From Parvivirga hydrogeniphila (GTDB taxonomy: Bacteria > Actinomycetota > Coriobacteriia > Anaerosomatales > Anaerosomataceae), in NCBI RefSeq assembly GCF_023371205.1, contig NZ_JAMCCO010000002.1, forward strand, positions 373,501 through 437,500: a stretch of DNA of 64,000 nucleotides, given 5' to 3'. Every line of letters begins with the position of its first letter. Position 1 is the first letter of the stretch. Below the pieces are notes generated by a model. The model was not told the DNA's origin and ran no database searches. It was given only the letters and a program-made list of their open reading frames with translations. Below, in pieces: positions 50,092 to 64,000 of this stretch. A program made the translations under genes and the position numbers.

Positions 50092-50168
50092 TCGAGTCCT
50101 CGGTCTCCCGGAAGCACGCGCATCGCGCGGGCGACTGGGCCTCAAGTCCTCGAAGGCCGACGTCGCAG

Positions 50169-50292
50169 GGATCCCAGGCAGGTCTCCTGACTTCGGGGCG
50201 CATGCCCCGTCACAGTGGCGGGTCCGTGCCGGACTTGCACCGGCTTCCCTATTCTCCTGCCTTCGCGTGCGCTTCGGCAGGCACCTGGGACC
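50169..50292 (-). promoter_or_regulatory. Cobalamin riboswitch aptamer
   Basis: On the minus strand the elements appear in the expected order: CCAGGTGCC at the 5' end, GGGAAGCCGGTGCAAGTCCGG, the B12 box core GACCCGCCACTGTGA and a 3' segment GTCAGGAGACCTGCCTGG that closes the P1 stem. It precedes btuF by about 160 bases and should shut the btuFCD-cobO operon when adenosylcobalamin or another corrinoid is plentiful. The region 50009-50516 holds this aptamer, its terminator and the promoter area of the divergent gene. Confidence 0.93.
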
Positions 50293-50464
50293 GCTGTTCG
50301 GTTCGCTGCGATTGTAGACCGCCCGCCCGCGATGCGCCAGGGGCAGCGTTCGACGACATTCTTACGTGAGACAACGGGGACACAGACGCGGATACGGGGC
50401 GGCGGATCTCCGTGCAGCGTCCAGTCGCACGCGACATCGCCGCCCTCCGCGTGCGACAAAGCGG

Positions 50465-56748: not shown

Positions 56749-57339
56749 CTACTCCGTCGCTGTGAGCCCTCGGATCACCTCGTCGACGCGATGGCCCTCG
56801 ACGCTCTCGTCAATCGCGAAGAAGCGTATGCCGAGAGGCTCAAGTCGCTCGAGGAGAGCCTCGATGTAGACTCCTGGCAGCGGCGCGGATTCAACACGAG
56901 ACACGACTTCCGCCCATTCCGCAGGTGCGTATTCGCCTCCCCAGTGGCCCGAAGCGGACTTCGTCACGCCACAGGTCGGGCTCCCGTCGACCCCCACGAC
57001 ACCAAGGATCTCGTACCCACAGCGCCGATACTCCTGAACCTGCGCGAGGACCTCATCGGCGAGCCGCGCACAGAGTCCGCGGAATGGGACGTTCTCGTAC
57101 TGCTCTCGTGTTTGGCCCCATCTGCTCATGCCGCACGATCGAATCTCAGGACAGGGCATCTGAATGATTCCGAGGCCGAGGGCGGCCAACTGCGCGATCA
57201 ACGGGTGTACTCCCGCGTACTGGGCGAGCCCTTCCACCTTCGAGTTCGCGTTCAGCAAGCAGTGGCAAACGAACACGATCCTGCGGCTCCTGGAATCTAC
57301 CGGGTTCCGGCCTGCATCTTCTGTGGTCATCTCGGTCAT
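56749..57339 (-). CDS. TudS-related (DUF523) putative Fe-S desulfidase
   Basis: 196 residues (ATG at 57339; ATG at 57330 is also possible after GGGGAG). Motifs IVFVCHCLLNANSKVEG, IQMPCPEIRSCGMSRWGQTREQYENVPFRGLC and GVVGVDGSPTCGVTKSAS match the DUF523/TudS group; cysteines in the CHCLLN, PCPE and PTCG segments would hold a three-Cys [4Fe-4S] cluster. TudS removes sulfur from thiouracil. This subgroup is known to be encoded beside an ECF transporter substrate component, as here on the opposite strand. Substrate unproven. Confidence 0.75.
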   Translation of the reverse strand: MTEMTTEDAGRNPVDSRSRRIVFVCHCLLNANSKVEGLAQYAGVHPLIAQLAALGLGIIQMPCPEIRSCGMSRWGQTREQYENVPFRGLCARLADEVLAQVQEYRRCGYEILGVVGVDGSPTCGVTKSASGHWGGEYAPAEWAEVVSRVESAPLPGVYIEALLERLEPLGIRFFAIDESVEGHRVDEVIRGLTATE

Positions 57340-57367
57340 CTCCCCGTGACTGCCGCAAGGATTCCGC

Positions 57368-57396
57368 TTGACGATTCAGATTGTCACTTGTAGCAT
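57368..57396 (+). promoter_or_regulatory. Putative promoter of the ECF transporter operon
   Basis: TTGACG (57368-57373) and TAGCAT (57391-57396) are 17 bp apart, ideal spacing; 5 and 4 consensus matches. It lies 75 bp upstream of the S-component start. Confidence 0.5.
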
Positions 57397-57404
57397 CAGG
57401 CTGG

Positions 57405-57410
57405 ATTATA
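57405..57410 (-). promoter_or_regulatory. Putative -10 box for the TudS-like gene
   Basis: ATTATA on the plus strand is a perfect TATAAT on the minus strand, 66 bp upstream of the TudS-like start. It overlaps the control region of the divergent ECF operon, so both may answer to the same regulator. No -35 match at 17 bp. Confidence 0.45.
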
Positions 57411-57470
57411 GCTTGTATACCGGTTCATGCACGTCGACCGACCGGCATCTGGCGACGAAGGAGGGCTGTA

Positions 57471-58031
57471 GTGAACAAGCGCATTTCGCTCGTGTTCGTA
57501 CCGGTGGGAATCGGGGTCAATGTGATCGGCGGGTTGCTCGCCAGCTCGCTCAAGTTGCCCGTCTTCCTCGATACGATCGGTACGATTCTCTCCGCGGCGA
57601 TACTCGGCCCATGGTGGGGAGCGCTTACGGGAGGACTGACGAACGTCATCATGGCGCTCCAGAACCCGATGGACATGTGGTTCGCCATCGTCAACATCGC
57701 TGTCGGACTGATCATAGGCTTCATCTCCGTCAAGTACGGGTTTCAGAAGTGGCTCGTCGTGCTCATCGCCGGTCTCATCATCTCCGTCGTGGCGCCGATC
57801 ATCGGCACCACGATCGCTACATATCTATACGGTGGCCTCACGGGTGGCGGACTCGACATCTTCGTCGGCGGACTCATGAAGGCTGGTGCCGACGTGTTCA
57901 CGGCCGCGTTCATACCTAGGATCGCTTCGAACCTTGTGGACAAACTCCTCTCTGTCTTCGTGGTGATGTTCGTGATCATGGCGCTTCCGAAGACGCTTAA
58001 GGGCTGCGCGGCAGGCCCGGAGGAGGCATAG
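57471..58031 (+). CDS. ECF transporter substrate-binding (S) component
   Basis: 186 residues from the GTG preceded by GAAGGAGGG at 7-base spacing. Five to six helices; ISLVFVPVGIGVNVIGGLLASSLKLPVFLDTIGTILSAAILGPWWGALTGGLTNVIM is the S-component type N-terminus that recurs in nucleobase/vitamin uptake systems. It resembles the S component paired with TudS-related genes in clostridia. A thiolated or other nucleobase-like ligand is an inference from the neighbours. Confidence 0.8.
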   Translation: MNKRISLVFVPVGIGVNVIGGLLASSLKLPVFLDTIGTILSAAILGPWWGALTGGLTNVIMALQNPMDMWFAIVNIAVGLIIGFISVKYGFQKWLVVLIAGLIISVVAPIIGTTIATYLYGGLTGGGLDIFVGGLMKAGADVFTAAFIPRIASNLVDKLLSVFVVMFVIMALPKTLKGCAAGPEEA

Positions 58032-58055
58032 CTCCCGACATGCGGAGAGGCATCG

Positions 58056-58826
58056 TTGTCCGCTGATGTGACAGGGGGGCTCCCGACGTTCGAGCCGGGG
58101 GCCCTTCCGCATCCGATAGGGTTAGGAGCCGTCCCCGTCGGCCCGCGGATGTTCCTCGCCGCCTGTGGGATCCTCGCTATCGCACTGACACCGACGATTC
58201 TATGTCTCGGCGTTCAGCTGCTCGCGCTCCTTGCAGCGGCGACCGCCACAGGGCTCCTCGTGCCTCTCGTGCGGAGCTGGAGGGGTGTCGCCTGGGTCTC
58301 TCTGTCCTTGCTGGTCATCTACTCGTGGGCATATCCTGGCTCGACTGACCACGTGTGGATCTTCGGCGTTCAGGGCTTTCTCGCCGGCCTACTCATCGTG
58401 ATACGTCTTCTCGGGTTCGTCTCGGTCATGTATCTGTTGCTGCTATCAACGGGACCATCGGCGATCATTCGGTGGGCCGGAGATGTGAACGAGGATCTTG
58501 GCATCATGATCTCGCTCACGCTCAGCGTACTGCCTGTTATGAAGCAGCAGATGGATACCACCATCCAGGCACAGCAGGCCCGCGGGATGGCCATGGGCGG
58601 GAACCTTGTGCGCAAGATGCGCGCCTACCTTGCCGTGTTGATCCCCGTCATCGTGAAGTCGCTCGTGCGTGCTTACGGCATGGCTGCTCTGCTGCATGTC
58701 CGAGGATACAGCTCCAGCCGTAGGGTGAAGCCTCAACGCAAGGTGACCTTAGGAGCTGCAGCCTGCTATGCAGCAGGTGCGCTCTGGATCGTGGCTGTCG
58801 CGGCGACTCGGTTGGTGTTCCGATGA
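58056..58826 (+). CDS. ECF transporter transmembrane (T) component
   Basis: 256 residues from a TTG start (GGAGAGG five bases upstream). Membrane segments LAACGILAIALTPTILCLGVQLLALLAA, WVSLSLLVIYSWAY and a coupling region MDTTIQAQQARGMAMGG with the Ala-Arg-Gly motif, plus ALLHVRGYSSSRRV as the second Arg-Gly site. EcfT/CbiQ family. Links the S component to the fused ATPase; its 3' end overlaps the ATPase gene by 4 bp. Confidence 0.82.
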   Translation: MSADVTGGLPTFEPGALPHPIGLGAVPVGPRMFLAACGILAIALTPTILCLGVQLLALLAAATATGLLVPLVRSWRGVAWVSLSLLVIYSWAYPGSTDHVWIFGVQGFLAGLLIVIRLLGFVSVMYLLLLSTGPSAIIRWAGDVNEDLGIMISLTLSVLPVMKQQMDTTIQAQQARGMAMGGNLVRKMRAYLAVLIPVIVKSLVRAYGMAALLHVRGYSSSRRVKPQRKVTLGAAACYAAGALWIVAVAATRLVFR

Positions 58827-60244
58827 GCGACCGTGGAGCATACGTCACAGCCGAGGGGGTCGGCTTCACGTACACGCGTGCTCGTTCGGCGGCAATCGCA
58901 GGTATCGACTTCGTCGCCACCCCTGGCTCAGAGAATTGGATAACCGGGCCGAATGCGGCGGGTAAGAGCACTCTTCTAGGGGTCATCGCGGGTGTCGTTC
59001 CCACGGTGATAGAGGGCAATCTCACGGGACGACTGGATGTGGTTGGGGCGGGCACGGGGGGTGCCGCCACTACTTCGATGGTGTTACAAGACTCGGACGT
59101 CTATCTGTTTCGCAGCGTCTTCGACGAGATCGCGTTTCCTCTGGCTAACCGTGGGGTGTCAGGAGACGAACTGGATTCGGCGGTTCTTGGCGCACTCGAA
59201 GCGGTCGGCATCGCTCATCTCGAGTCTCGCTTGATGCACACGCTCTCGGGCGGCGAACGTCAGAAGGTCGCAGTTGCAGCGGCTCTCGCGGTCGATCCAG
59301 ACGTGCTGCTTCTGGACGAGCCCTTCGAGCAGCTCGATCCTGCATCGGCCGTTGAGGTTCTTGGACTCGCGCGCCGGCAGTCCGCTCTTGGGACGACGGT
59401 GTTCATTGCCACCCGCGAGGCCGGGCATGTGCCAGAGGGTGCCAACCGGCTTCATCTTGTCGGGGGCGTTCCCCACGTTGACGATGCCGAGCCGAGAATA
59501 GTGTGTTGGCCCAAAGCTCGCCCCCTGGGGGGCCTGCTCCTGGAGCTACGGAATCTCACCCACCGGTACGGCTCGGGTGGCGGTGTCGAGGACGTCGATC
59601 TGAGCGTGCATGAGGGTGAGTCGGTCGCGCTTCTCGGCCCGAACGGCGCTGGCAAGACGACGATCATGAAACACGCCTGCGGCCTCCTTCGGCCCGATTC
59701 AGGCGAGGTGCGCGTGCTCGACCAGGATGCGAGCGACCAACAGGTCTGGGACTTGGCGCGCGTCGTAGGAACTCTCTTTCAGAATCCCGACGACCAGATC
59801 TTCAACAGGTTGGTGGAGATGGAGGTCGCCTGGAGTCTCATCGCTCGAGGAACCGCCAAGGAGGCAGCCCTCGAGCGGGCGCACGCGGTCATGGCGGAGC
59901 TGGGCATCAGCAGGCTGGCAATGGAGAATCCCCACGAGATAACTGCATCCGAACGGCAGCTGGTGGCGTTCGCCTCGGTTCTCGTCGCGGAGCCCCGTCT
60001 CATCGTGCTCGATGAACCCACGAAAGCGCTCGACGCCGATGCTGCGGAGACTGTAGCGTCTGCAATCGAGCGACGACTTGATGATGGCGCTGGCGTGCTG
60101 CTTGTCACCCATGATGTGCGTTTCGCCGCCCGGCTCTCCAATCGTTGCGTAGTACTGGCCGACGGGCGAGTGATTGCGAACGGGCCCTCGTGTGAAGTGC
60201 TGGAAGATGCGAGCCTGCTTCGCCGTGCACGGCTTCTCACATAG
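58823..60244 (+). CDS. ECF transporter ATPase, two fused nucleotide-binding domains
   Basis: 473 residues. First domain: Walker A GPNAAGKSTLLG, VLQDSDVYLF, signature LSGGERQKVAVAAAL, LLLDEPFEQLDP. Second domain from about residue 235: LLGPNGAGKTTIMKHACG, FQNPDDQIFNRLV, ITASERQLVAFASVL, IVLDEPTKALD and VTHDVRFA. The FQNPDDQ Q-loop is the EcfA hallmark. The second signature ITASERQ departs from LSGGQ, so one of the two ATP sites may be weak or inactive. Confidence 0.88.
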   Translation: MSDRGAYVTAEGVGFTYTRARSAAIAGIDFVATPGSENWITGPNAAGKSTLLGVIAGVVPTVIEGNLTGRLDVVGAGTGGAATTSMVLQDSDVYLFRSVFDEIAFPLANRGVSGDELDSAVLGALEAVGIAHLESRLMHTLSGGERQKVAVAAALAVDPDVLLLDEPFEQLDPASAVEVLGLARRQSALGTTVFIATREAGHVPEGANRLHLVGGVPHVDDAEPRIVCWPKARPLGGLLLELRNLTHRYGSGGGVEDVDLSVHEGESVALLGPNGAGKTTIMKHACGLLRPDSGEVRVLDQDASDQQVWDLARVVGTLFQNPDDQIFNRLVEMEVAWSLIARGTAKEAALERAHAVMAELGISRLAMENPHEITASERQLVAFASVLVAEPRLIVLDEPTKALDADAAETVASAIERRLDDGAGVLLVTHDVRFAARLSNRCVVLADGRVIANGPSCEVLEDASLLRRARLLT

Positions 60245-60401: not shown

Positions 60402-61742
60402 ATGAACGAATCCAAGAAGCGCACGTACATCGTCTATCTGGCAGGTCCCATCACCGGCTGCAATGACGACCAGAAAAACCGGTGGCGCAAGGAGTTCAAG
60501 CAGATCGTCGGGAAGCGCCGAAACGATGTCGAGTTCCACGACCCGACGGAGTGGAGCACCGACTGGAAACCGCTTCGGGAGACATTCCTTCTTCGAACCG
60601 TCGATGTGGTCGTCGCGAACATGTGGAAGGAGTCGATCGGCACCACCGTCGGCATCATGCAGGCGCTCGACCTGGGCAAGCCCGTGATACTCATCGACCC
60701 CTGCTATCTCAACAGCAAGATCCTTGAGGGCTTGCTGGGCGACAAGCCCGCCCGCTCGGTCCAGGAGGCGGCTGACCGCCTGAACGACCTGCTTGATCGG
60801 ACTGGGGACGTGTTCGTGCAGAAGAGCACCGGAGAGGTCGTCCCTTTCGAACTGACCAAGCTCGTCGCATCGATCCAGACCGCGTGCGCAGCGGCGCACA
60901 TACCCGAGGACCAGTTCGCGAACCAGATCTCCAGAGCGGTTCTGCAATCGCTAGAAACGTCCGCCGATAGCGAGCGGCCCGTCCCGACGAGCGCGATCAG
61001 AGGCGCTATCTTCGAAGTCTTGGAAGACTACAGCACCAGCGCACGGTACGACGCCGATATCCGCCATCTCGCGGCGGCGGTGAAACGAGAGTGGGAGAAG
61101 AAAGAGAACTACAAGCGCGAAGACGCCATCGTCGAGAAGACGGAGGCCGATCTGGCCGCAGCTCGAGCGGAGGCCGAGCAATACAAGGAACTATGGATGG
61201 CGGCAGCGGCCAGTCGGAAAGCGGCCCTCCCCAGCGACGAGCCGAGCTCTGGACCCAGCAGCCTCCGTACACCGCGTTTGCGCACTCTTGAAGAAGCGGT
61301 CCGTTTGGCTGAAGAGAAATGGCGGGATTCTCTTGAGATTCTGCCATCTGCGCGCAGGAGTGCGCGCAAGTACGACAAGTGGAGAGACGCCGACAAGGTC
61401 TTCGAACTCTTGGATCTGCTTGGCGAATGCGCATTCGAGCGGATGGTGGACAAGTCCGAGCGGCAAGTCGGACCGACGCTCGACCAGATGCTCAAGCAGC
61501 GGCAGCGCGGCTTCGAGTATGCCCCGACCGAAAGCAAAGAGACCATGGACCGATACGGACGGGAACGGACATTCTCCGGCCGAGACGGCAAGCAGTGGGT
61601 TTGTAAACAGCACCTGAAGATCGGGACGCGCGGAGGTGCGGAAAGGCTGCTGCGCATCTACTTCTGCGAGGACCCTGCCACCGGTCGCATCGTGATCGGG
61701 CATGTCGGGAAGCATCTGACGACGTACACGGGGGACTCGTGA
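60402..61742 (+). CDS. Multidomain protein: nucleoside 2-deoxyribosyltransferase-like fold, ATP-cone, coiled coil, unknown C-terminus
   Basis: 446 residues, ATG after GAGGGGGGAAG. Residues 9-100 resemble nucleoside 2-deoxyribosyltransferases: YLAGPITG (12-19), Asp68 in DVVVANMW, and SIGTTVGIMQALDLGKPVILID. The catalytic Glu expected in GTxxExG is Gly84 here. Residues about 136-235 form an ATP-cone (VQKSTGEVVPFELTKLVASI). A Lys/Glu/Ala-rich coiled coil follows (about 240-285), then a C-terminal domain ending IYFCEDPATGRIVIGHVGKHL that vaguely recalls small RelE-like toxins. It may sense or process nucleotides; placed between an uptake locus and a DISARM gene, a defence role is possible. Function unknown. 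Confidence 0.6.
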   Translation: MNESKKRTYIVYLAGPITGCNDDQKNRWRKEFKQIVGKRRNDVEFHDPTEWSTDWKPLRETFLLRTVDVVVANMWKESIGTTVGIMQALDLGKPVILIDPCYLNSKILEGLLGDKPARSVQEAADRLNDLLDRTGDVFVQKSTGEVVPFELTKLVASIQTACAAAHIPEDQFANQISRAVLQSLETSADSERPVPTSAIRGAIFEVLEDYSTSARYDADIRHLAAAVKREWEKKENYKREDAIVEKTEADLAAARAEAEQYKELWMAAAASRKAALPSDEPSSGPSSLRTPRLRTLEEAVRLAEEKWRDSLEILPSARRSARKYDKWRDADKVFELLDLLGECAFERMVDKSERQVGPTLDQMLKQRQRGFEYAPTESKETMDRYGRERTFSGRDGKQWVCKQHLKIGTRGGAERLLRIYFCEDPATGRIVIGHVGKHLTTYTGDS

Positions 61743-61771
61743 GCGCCTCCTGCGCCGAAGAAAAGACCTCC

Positions 61772-61836
61772 GCGGCTACCGCTGCAAGACCGGGCGGATC
61801 TGGGATCTGAAGTTGGGGTGAGGGGCGGGCTGTCGC
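61772..61836 (+). repeat. Direct repeat, right copy (fragment of GNAT-like gene 3' end)
   Basis: 59 of 65 bases match 56241-56305. The frame reads LRGYRCKTGRIWDLKLG and stop, against GGHRYKTWRIWDLKLG in the intact gene, with no gene body upstream. It ends 60 bp before the drmD start. Confidence 0.75.
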
Positions 61837-61895
61837 CATCGTGTCAGAGGGTTTTGCTACGCTAGGCGAAGCTTCCGACCCCTCCGGGAGGCGAC

Positions 61896-64000
61896 ATGGG
61901 GAACACCGTCGTGCCACGTCCAGGCATGTTCGCGGTGGTACGTAACCGCCGCGGCGTCATCGCTGCCGTCGAGCCGTTCGACGGTGAGCACGGGCGGACG
62001 CACGCGGTCACAATCGAGTACCGCGACGAGCTCTTTCCTCCGAGCCAGACGCTGATCTGGGAGCTTGAGGGGGCGCACGCCTCGGTTCTTGAACCGAACG
62101 CCCTGCCGGACCCGATGCGCGGCGAACCGATGCCGCCAGAGGACTTCGACGCACTCGTGCGGGCAGCTCGCTGGACGAGCGCGATGCCGTACCTCGATCC
62201 GGACGGCTCCGGTCCGCTCGGCCGGCTCCCGTTCCGAAGCCCGTTCCACGCTGCGGTCGAAGTCGACGACTACCAGCTCGTGCCACTGCTCAAGGCACTC
62301 AGGATGCCGCGCGTGCGCCTCCTGATTGCAGACGACGTGGGCCTCGGAAAGACAGTGGAGGCCGGCCTTATCCTCTCCGAGCTCCTCATCCGGCGACGCA
62401 TCCAGCGCGTGCTGATTCTGACCCCGGCATCCCTACGGCTCCAATGGCGCGACGAGATGCGGGAGAAGTTCTCGCTCTCCTTCGAGCTCGTCGACCGTGA
62501 GCAGACCGAACAGCTCCGCCGCCGCCTAGGCATGGATGCGAACCCGTGGAGAGCGTTCCCCAGGATCATCGCATCGTACCACTACTTGCGCCAGCCTGAC
62601 ATCCTCGAGCAGTTCAACGCGGCGTGCAGAACACCGGACGACTCGCCGCGGCTCCCGTGGGATCTGCTCATCGTAGACGAATGCCACAATCTCATGCCGT
62701 CTTCGTTCGGCAAGGACTCTGACCTCGCAGAGATGCTTCGCATCATCGCACCGCGCTTCGAGCATCGGTTGTTCCTCTCAGCTACGCCGCACAACGGTCA
62801 CACGCGCAGCTTCACGGGTCTGTTGGAGATACTCGACCCAGTGCGCTTCAGCGCTACGGACGAACTTAGGCCAGCAGAGCGCGCTCGTGTCGAGCAGCTC
62901 GTCATCCGGCGCCTGAAGCGCGAGATCAACGACCGGACCGACCCACCAAAGTTCTGCCGGCGCCTGGATCCCATCGCTCTCAGGCTCGACTTCTCACCAG
63001 AAGAAGCGGCGTTGACAGAAGCCTTCGACAAGTTCCGAGCGGCCATGCGGTCGTGGATCTCCCAAGGAGACGCGAAGAGGCGTCGTGCGGGCCACTTTGC
63101 CGTAGAGGTGCTCGGAAAGCGGCTCCTCTCCTGTCCCGTCGCGTTCGCCGATTCGTGGCGCCGGTGCAAAGAAGGGCTCGCGGCGCAGCAAGCGGCGACC
63201 GAGGCCGACGTCGACGTGGCGCGCAAGAGCGTCGAACGCGACACCGACGACGACCGCGAGGCCGCATCGCGCGAATCGGTCGCTGCAACGGTGGTAGGCG
63301 CATGGCTGGTGAAGGCAGCCCCGCACCTTGAAAACCACATCGCGACGATCGATCGGGCGCTTGCGCGACTCGGCCTCGACAGCGACCGCGCCGACAGCTT
63401 CGCCGACCTCGACCCCGTCCGCGACGCACGCTTCGACGCGCTCGTCACGCTCATCGAAAAGCTCCTGCGCTCAGATGGCCGCTGGCGCGACGACGAGCGC
63501 CTCGTCGTATTCACCGAGTACAAGACGACGCTCGACTACCTGGCCCGCCGACTGAGAGAGCGTTACGAGGACAAACGCGTCCTGACGCTCTTCGGTGGCA
63601 TGGACGACGCCGACCGCGAGGCAGTGAAACGGGCGTTCAACAATCCCGCAGACGCCGTGCGCGTGCTCATCGCAACCGACGCAGCCGCGGAAGGATTGAA
63701 CCTCCAGCAGACCGCACGATACCTCTTGCACTTCGACTTGCCCTGGAACCCAAGCAAGACCGAGCAGCGGAACGGCCGACTCGATCGCCACGGTCAGGCT
63801 CGCGACGTGCAGATCTTCCACTTTGCCAGCGAGACTGACGACGATCTTCGGTTCCTAGCGCACGTGATGCGGAAAGCGAACGACATCCGCGAAGACCTGG
63901 GCAGCGCGAACGAGCTCTTTGACACCGTGATCCATCGGAAGCTCATTGACGGTGAGTCCATGGGTGCGGTCGAACACGACCTTGATCGTGGGCTTACCGT
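61896..64000 (+). CDS. drmD: DISARM SNF2-like helicase DrmD, 3' end outside window
   Basis: 701 residues are visible and the frame is open at base 64000. It starts at an ATG after GGGAGGCGAC. The N-terminus FAVVRNRRGVIAAVEPFDG, then YQLVPLLKALRMPRVRLLIADDVGLGKTVEAGLILSELL in outline with Lys152 of the Walker A, DECH at 261-264, SATPHNGHTRSFTGLLEILDPVRF, and the helicase C motifs VVFTEYKTTLDYL, LIATDAAAEGLNLQ and EQRNGRLDRHGQ. This layout is that of DrmD, the marker helicase of class 1 DISARM phage defence. The remaining drm genes should follow downstream. Confidence 0.85.
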   Translation, partial: MGNTVVPRPGMFAVVRNRRGVIAAVEPFDGEHGRTHAVTIEYRDELFPPSQTLIWELEGAHASVLEPNALPDPMRGEPMPPEDFDALVRAARWTSAMPYLDPDGSGPLGRLPFRSPFHAAVEVDDYQLVPLLKALRMPRVRLLIADDVGLGKTVEAGLILSELLIRRRIQRVLILTPASLRLQWRDEMREKFSLSFELVDREQTEQLRRRLGMDANPWRAFPRIIASYHYLRQPDILEQFNAACRTPDDSPRLPWDLLIVDECHNLMPSSFGKDSDLAEMLRIIAPRFEHRLFLSATPHNGHTRSFTGLLEILDPVRFSATDELRPAERARVEQLVIRRLKREINDRTDPPKFCRRLDPIALRLDFSPEEAALTEAFDKFRAAMRSWISQGDAKRRRAGHFAVEVLGKRLLSCPVAFADSWRRCKEGLAAQQAATEADVDVARKSVERDTDDDREAASRESVAATVVGAWLVKAAPHLENHIATIDRALARLGLDSDRADSFADLDPVRDARFDALVTLIEKLLRSDGRWRDDERLVVFTEYKTTLDYLARRLRERYEDKRVLTLFGGMDDADREAVKRAFNNPADAVRVLIATDAAAEGLNLQQTARYLLHFDLPWNPSKTEQRNGRLDRHGQARDVQIFHFASETDDDLRFLAHVMRKANDIREDLGSANELFDTVIHRKLIDGESMGAVEHDLDRGLT

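What the first reader, a model, noticed from the sequence alone, without database searches (positions are those of the whole stretch)
56749..60244. TudS-like desulfidase divergent from an ECF transporter: possible thio-nucleobase salvage
A DUF523/TudS-related protein with cluster cysteines faces a complete S-T-A ECF transporter across a 131-bp shared control region. TudS desulfurates thiouracil. Association of this TudS subgroup with an ECF S component is recurrent in anaerobes, which suggests uptake and desulfuration of a sulfur-bearing nucleobase or related compound. The nucleoside-type gene following the transporter strengthens a nucleobase theme.
Basis: partly seen in the sequence, partly recalled or inferred. 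Interest (0 to 1): 0.72.

Follow-up and report, generated by a model that had tools for sequence, protein, structure and literature searches.

The report
Importer-paired sulfur-stripping enzyme of anaerobes
A bacterial gene for an iron-sulfur enzyme of the kind that strips sulfur from small molecules sits beside genes for an uptake pump, and its relatives in many oxygen-avoiding microbes sit beside four unrelated kinds of uptake pump, which suggests that these microbes import and desulfurate a sulfur compound that has yet to be identified.

Summary
In detail: a TudS-like gene (56749-57339, -) faces S, T and A genes of an ECF transporter (57471-60244, +) across 131 bp. Both key proteins pass the cut-offs of paired NCBIfam families, NF045597 "TudS_rel_CD3072" and NF045596 "ECF_S_CD3073", so the pair is catalogued, without known substrate. 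In 247 genomes of the C. difficile order, 58 of 59 genomes with the S gene have the enzyme; 53 of 59 S genes lie within 1.5 kb of it. The model's best structural match is TudS (Z 11.8); the three cluster cysteines, the glutamate and the first serine are kept throughout. The nucleobase reading is weaker. The tyrosine that stacks uracil in TudS is V/I here in 82 of 82 readable members, but Y in 20 of 20 classical TudS. The "nucleoside-type" next gene belongs to a defence island; no relative of it was found in 80 related loci. New here: the enzyme family is tied to four unrelated importer classes that replace each other between close relatives, whereas classical TudS is not (27 of 30 loci against 0 of 30). 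Best reading: uptake, then desulfuration, of an unphosphorylated sulfur compound of unknown identity. Verdict: real, partly known, substrate open.

The parts
56749..57339 (-). TudS-related [4Fe-4S] putative desulfidase (CD3072 family), 196 aa; C27, C63, C123, E65, S120 kept; V35 in place of the uracil-stacking Tyr18 of TudS
   Evidence: NF045597, 149.3 bits; model pLDDT 92.6; 6z96 TudS, Z 11.8
57340..57470 (.). 131-bp divergent intergenic control region; no Rfam match at gathering threshold here
   Evidence: partly conserved with L019
57471..58031 (+). ECF transporter S component (CD3073 family), 186 aa, GTG start
   Evidence: NF045596, 198.3 bits; pLDDT 83.5; PanT, ThiT, FolT folds, prob 1.00
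58056..58826 (+). ECF transporter T component (EcfT/CbiQ type), 256 aa
   Evidence: PF02361, 6.3e-15
58823..60244 (+). ECF transporter A component, two fused ABC ATPase domains, 473 aa
   Evidence: (PF00005, two stretches)

Best explanation
The S, T and A genes form a dedicated ECF importer that takes up a small sulfur-bearing compound in unphosphorylated form. The divergently transcribed CD3072-family enzyme then removes its sulfur: as in TudS, three cysteines would hold a [4Fe-4S] cluster whose fourth iron binds the substrate's sulfur, the carbon is attacked with help of Glu65 and Ser120, and the sulfur leaves by way of a [4Fe-5S] state as sulfide. The compound is probably not the 4-thio-UMP or thiouracil that classical TudS handles; a small thione-type compound (C=S) is the best guess. 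Shown: gene order, families, fold of the model, conserved cluster ligands, recurrent importer linkage, loss of the uracil-stacking residue. Inferred: cluster assembly, catalysis, direction and substrate of transport.
For: Fold: TudS is the top Foldseek hit and VIA Z 11.8, next row 6.8. Active site: C27, C63, E65 in 82 of 82 and S120, C123 in 81 of 81 readable rows; also in 22 of 22 short S-linked members and 9 of 9 further long ones. Linkage: 67 of 83 loci have an importer part within 3.5 kb (26 amino-acid-type ABC, 24 ECF S, 13 NMT1-type ABC, 4 carbohydrate-type ABC); 60 of 80 within 1.5 kb against 5 of 226 other genes of the same loci; 27 of 30 against 0 of 30 classical TudS loci. In 247 genomes S and enzyme co-occur in 58 (S 59, enzyme 76). 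Importer swaps between close kin (at least 18 label changes). The 26 linked SBP_bac_3 proteins form a distinct set: the position that is Asp or Glu in 16 of 21 controls is Gly in 25 of 25 readable linked rows, and the Arg kept in 19 of 21 controls is lost in 17 of 26. Pocket: Tyr18 equivalent V/I/L; Arg17 equivalent V or T in 22 of 22 short forms.
Against: No biochemistry of any member was found. 16 of 83 loci show no importer part within 3.5 kb (archaeal members, Caloramator and truncated contigs among them), and 11 more copies fetched on purpose because they lack an adjacent S show none either (L252, L255, L259-L263, L265, L266, L274, L286). Different importers could carry different substrates. 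The co-occurrence test is not corrected for kinship. Importer profiles were built from the partners themselves, so the 27-against-0 control favours those classes. No enzyme that would use the product recurs.
Confidence: 0.6

Rival explanations
1. Thio-nucleobase or thio-nucleoside salvage: the S component imports thiouracil-like bases and the enzyme turns them into uracil or cytosine for salvage.
For: TudS fold and catalytic residues; two loci with a 5'-nucleotidase-like gene between the enzyme and a carbohydrate-type importer; one copy next to iscS and a thiI-like gene; the host has a uracil phosphoribosyltransferase, but the family rings in 14 of 14 control genomes too.
Against: The uracil-stacking Tyr is V/I/L in all compared members and Y in 20 of 20 classical TudS; most genomes sampled of the same order also carry classical TudS; nucleobase-salvage families do not recur among 65 operon-linked non-importer proteins (first 25 of 87 families seen); the following window gene is defence-linked.
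Confidence: 0.18
2. The enzyme acts on an imported vitamin-like or other sulfur-free substrate: the [4Fe-4S] site does hydration, dehydration or reduction rather than desulfuration, as in fold relatives such as 2-hydroxyacyl-CoA dehydratases.
For: S components with known ligands bind vitamins (PanT, ThiT, FolT, RibU, BioY are the nearest folds); the next fold match of the enzyme is (R)-2-hydroxyisocaproyl-CoA dehydratase (Z 6.8).
Against: TudS is far closer (Z 11.8), and its catalytic Glu and first Ser are kept.
Confidence: 0.12
3. Each importer class brings in its own sulfur compound and the enzyme family has diversified with them; there is no single common compound.
For: Labels are clustered on the tree (18 changes against 46.7 in shuffles); a short enzyme form lacking a stretch after the third cysteine is tied to S genes in co-directional pairs.
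Against: Swaps between near relatives (Tissierella, Fretibacterium, Desulfobacterium).
Confidence: 0.25

Closest known systems
CD3072/CD3073 pair of NCBIfam (NF045597 TudS-related putative desulfidase; NF045596 putative ECF S component)
   Same: Both window proteins pass the curated cut-offs; same pairing, also divergent in C. difficile
   Different: The window has its own T and A genes; in C. difficile and kin no T or A gene lies near S and the enzyme. The family names state no substrate.
TudS (DUF523, PF04463), 6z92-6z96; PMC10611767
   Same: Fold, three cluster cysteines, catalytic Glu and first Ser
   Different: No Pfam match for the window protein; Tyr18 replaced by Val35, Ser103 by Thr122; extra conserved Cys90 (absent in 20 of 20 classical); linked to importers, which classical TudS is not
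RudS (TudS-DUF1722 fusion, tRNA s4U eraser); PMC11417400
   Same: TudS domain used on a different substrate than classical TudS (passages seen)
   Different: No second domain found, 196 aa stand-alone, importer context
ECF vitamin transporters (PanT, ThiT, FolT, RibU)
   Same: S fold, T and A families
   Different: No close sequence relative with a solved structure (best hit 5d0y, E 0.03); substrate unknown

Membership tests
NF045597 TudS_rel_CD3072 | score over curated cut-off 130 bits | tested here: met
   149.3 bits, E 6e-44
NF045596 ECF_S_CD3073 | score over curated cut-off 180 bits | tested here: met
   198.3 bits, E 7.2e-59
TudS (PF04463, thiouracil desulfidase) | Pfam PF04463 match | tested here: not met
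   0 Pfam families at E<=0.01; some other CD3072 members match weakly
TudS (PF04463, thiouracil desulfidase) | TudS fold | tested here: met
   Foldseek prob 1.00, TMt 0.65; Z 11.8, rmsd 3.3, 146 aligned, on a predicted model
TudS (PF04463, thiouracil desulfidase) | three [4Fe-4S] cysteines and catalytic Glu45, Ser101 | tested here: met
   C27, C63, C123, E65, S120; roles from PMC10611767
TudS (PF04463, thiouracil desulfidase) | Ser103 | tested here: not met
   Thr122 in the window; S, N or T in most of the family
TudS (PF04463, thiouracil desulfidase) | Tyr18 that stacks on uracil | tested here: not met
   Val35; V 73 and I 9 of 82 readable rows
TudS (PF04463, thiouracil desulfidase) | desulfuration of thiouracil or 4-thio-UMP | not testable with these tools
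   needs purified enzyme
ECF transporter | S, T and ATPase components together | tested here: met
ECF transporter | transported substrate | not testable with these tools
   no specific S relative of known ligand
Thio-nucleobase salvage module | recurrent nucleobase-salvage partner genes | tested here: inconclusive
   none recurs among 65 operon-linked proteins apart from 5_nucleotid_C in 2 (first 25 of 87 families seen)

The most novel reading that the evidence does not exclude
CD3072-family enzymes are the core of an unrecognised sulfur-compound scavenging trait of anaerobic bacteria: one [4Fe-4S] desulfidase with a remodelled, non-uracil pocket has been coupled again and again to four unrelated importers (ECF, amino-acid-type ABC with lost amino-acid-binding residues, NMT1-type ABC, carbohydrate-type ABC) that all bring in the same common thio-compound, one not known as a nutrient today.
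Probability: 0.33. Interest if true: 0.75.

Novelty: new variant of a known kind. Interest (0 to 1): 0.5.

Why it matters
The substrate of a widespread, still unassigned ECF S component and of a TudS-like enzyme family could be found in one experiment, because many relatives pair the same enzyme with soluble binding proteins that can be purified with their ligand. It would show which sulfur compounds anaerobes, gut Clostridia included, take up and strip of sulfur as sulfide, and would extend the chemistry of [4Fe-4S] clusters as sulfide acceptors beyond thiolated uridines.

Tried and rejected
Riboswitch as a clue to the ligand: none by Rfam gathering threshold in the window near the locus or in 20 related loci (only a tmRNA). 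Sequence searches of solved structures gave nothing useful for the enzyme (and TudS only at E 0.45 with a profile) and weak FolT-type hits for S. Amino acid as ligand of the SBP_bac_3 partners: judged less likely because the usual Asp/Glu is Gly in all readable linked rows, but the usual Arg is kept in 9 of 26, so this is not settled (the roles of the two positions are recalled). Thiouracil salvage through uracil phosphoribosyltransferase: present in the host, but the family rings in 14 of 14 control genomes, so uninformative. SLAC1 channel plus C_GCAxxG_C_C protein downstream as sulfide export: only one Orenia and two Halanaerobium loci. A theme among the neighbours of orphan copies: no recurrence seen by eye. 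Ergothioneine desulfuration: an idea only, one paper search without a relevant hit. One search also printed a count of 34 enzyme copies adjacent to S; that line counts contig names by mistake and is not used.

Choices that shape counts: the genome scan kept the best 80 of 405 relatives and its patterns favour the RWG and CPE motifs; L027 (broken frame) was left out of the tree and a second L047 copy added; L047 was labelled NMT1, L070 and L073 ECF although NMT1-type genes also lie near. Of the 30 loci, 6 were linked to the enzyme, 3 partial ones (L224, L234, L242) were dropped and 21 served as controls. Classical TudS: 20 of the 30 fetched loci; the 9 long members there partly repeat genomes. 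One search scanned 65 of the 81 proteins listed; the 16 left out are near-copies (L049, L074), permease-like genes (L053, L247, L248, L264), a masked one (L076) and L274.

Paper searches: (TudS + ECF transporter, 0; CD3072/CD3073 names, 0; thiouracil + ECF transporter, 0), 97, in open-licence PMC only. Papers seen: PMC10611767 passages and section 9; PMC11417400 and PMC12013277 passages; the rest search listings only.
Full report
What is there. The gap between the divergent genes is 131 bp. The 196-aa protein passes the cut-off of NCBIfam NF045597, "CD3072 family TudS-related putative desulfidase" (149.3 against 130 bits), and the S protein that of NF045596, "CD3073 family putative ECF transporter S component" (198.3 against 180). 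The accession numbers are neighbours and the names look like those of adjacent C. difficile genes, so NCBI has evidently catalogued the pair (inference); no substrate is given. T matches PF02361 and A matches ABC_tran twice. The S model (pLDDT 83.5) matches ECF S components (PanT, ThiT, FolT, RibU, BioY) with probability up to 1.00, none of them clearly ahead.

The enzyme. A model from 80 relatives (pLDDT 92.6) matches TudS first (Foldseek E 2.3e-4; VIA Z 11.8, rmsd 3.3 over 146 residues, next row 6.8). In TudS, Cys10, Cys43 and Cys104 hold the [4Fe-4S] cluster, Glu45, Ser101 and Ser103 are proposed to take part in catalysis, docking puts the uracil between Tyr18 and Pro102, and Arg17 meets the phosphate (PMC10611767, passages and section 9). 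The equivalents here are C27, C63, C123, E65, S120, T122, V35, P121 and K34. C27, C63 and E65 are kept in 82 of 82 and S120 and C123 in 81 of 81 readable rows. Position 35 is V or I in 82 of 82, V, I or L in 22 of 22 members of a short form and V or I in 9 of 9 others (the 9 partly repeat genomes), but Y in 20 of 20 classical PF04463 proteins from the same order. Position 34 is Lys in most long members, V or T in 22 of 22 short ones, K or R in 20 of 20 classical ones. Cys90 is nearly constant in the family (77 of 84 rows) and absent from 20 of 20 classical ones. So the sulfur chemistry looks intact, while the pyrimidine stack, and in the short form also the phosphate contact, do not.

Pairing. 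In 247 genomes of the C. difficile order the S family is over cut-off in 59, the enzyme in 76, both in 58; 53 of 59 S genes lie within 1.5 kb of an enzyme gene, 33 co-directional and 20 divergent (the very small Fisher p value there ignores kinship). In 296 genomes of the window's own phylum the two are rare: enzyme over cut-off in 3, S in 1. Two congeners, G001 and G002, have an enzyme gene but no S match, so the ECF module is accessory in this genus.

A second copy and other importers. The window's genome has a second enzyme gene directly upstream of an amino-acid-type ABC transporter, and so do the single copies of G001 and G002. A scan of named genomes with four members gave 405 relatives, of which the best 80 were kept. 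Around these and the three genus copies, an importer part lies within 3.5 kb in 67 of 83 loci: SBP_bac_3 type 26, ECF S 24 (three of them with an NMT1-type gene near as well), NMT1 type 13, carbohydrate type 4; none in 16. The kinds are named. Within 1.5 kb, and with a score of at least 60, the figure is 60 of 80, against 5 of 226 other genes at least 4.5 kb away in the same loci. In the same order, the 30 fetched loci of this family show an importer part in 27, and the 30 fetched classical TudS loci in 0. Classical TudS is present over cut-off in 64 of 78 genomes there, so the two families live side by side.

Swapping. On a tree of 84 members the importer labels need at least 18 changes (shuffled mean 46.7); ECF and amino-acid type each need 10, at least 5 by well supported branches. 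Examples: an amino-acid type within the Tissierella NMT1 clade, amino-acid against carbohydrate type in two Fretibacterium, ECF within a mostly amino-acid-type clade in Desulfobacterium. Of 19 whole genomes searched, S is over cut-off in 11: 0 of the 7 whose fetched copy is of amino-acid type, 2 of 2 of NMT1 type (S lies elsewhere in the genome), and Caloramator, whose enzyme gene stands alone. This fits importers that stand in for one another, although different substrates per importer remain possible.

The amino-acid-type partners are odd. Against 21 SBP_bac_3 proteins from the same six genomes that are not linked to the enzyme, the 26 linked ones share a set of motifs. At a position that is Asp or Glu in 16 of 21 controls they have Gly in 25 of 25 readable rows; the Arg present in 19 of 21 controls is kept in 9 of 26. 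From memory these two positions hold the amino and carboxyl group of amino acids, so an ordinary amino acid is not the likely ligand.

Nucleobase theme. The gene after the transporter (60402-61742) has weak deoxyribosyltransferase/SLOG matches and an ATP-cone match, PADLOC matches to HEC-07 and NsnC, and precedes DrmD and, beyond the window, a large IIG/DrmMI-type methyltransferase and DarG, HEC-05 and AbiEii matches. phmmer found no relative of it among the called ORFs of the 80 loci. It is best read as a defence gene that happens to follow. For the theme speak a 5'-nucleotidase-like gene in two loci and an iscS and thiI-like neighbour in one. Among 65 operon-linked non-importer proteins no nucleobase-salvage family other than 5_nucleotid_C (2) was among the 25 commonest of 87. 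Most operons hold the enzyme and an importer only (81 further proteins, in 34 of 120 loci).

Reading. The best-supported explanation is import followed by desulfuration of an unphosphorylated sulfur compound, with sulfide as by-product (0.6). Whether all importers carry one compound is open. Nothing in print was found on this pairing in the searches listed under Tried and rejected, which cover open-licence papers only.

Noticed in passing
window 60402-64000 and L287 (G000:C2:433800-450000): Defence island directly downstream: an N-terminal SLOG-like / ATP-cone protein with HEC-07 and NsnC matches, DrmD helicase, a 1751-aa IIG/DrmMI-type methyltransferase, DarG, HEC-05 and AbiEii matches.
   Followed up: partly
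window 50160-50303 (-): Cobalamin riboswitch, 90.6 bits.
   Followed up: no
window 59900-60000 (second ATPase half of the A gene): The second half of the A protein has ITASERQ where an ABC signature (LSGGQ type, recalled) is expected; the first half has LSGGERQ.
   Followed up: no
window 56749-60244: G+C of the enzyme, S, T and A genes is 59-63% against 68.7% for the whole window, and two congeners lack the S gene, so the module may be acquired.
   Followed up: partly
L030, L085, L091: In Orenia and Halanaerobium the S gene and enzyme are followed by a C_GCAxxG_C_C redox protein and a SLAC1/TDT-type channel, a possible route for sulfide or another anion.
   Followed up: no
linked SBP_bac_3 proteins, e.g. 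L029:10559-11389: Two cysteines (GLCA and TCM motifs) occur together in most linked binding proteins and are both missing in the window's genus and in L087.
   Followed up: no
L046 and L062: Desulfobacterium loci carry two tandem S genes before one T, one A and the enzyme.
   Followed up: no
L119 and L123 (genome of L025, Tissierella praeacuta): Beside the S gene of this genome the enzyme copy is a fragment with a stop, while a full-length copy sits with an NMT1-type importer elsewhere.
   Followed up: no
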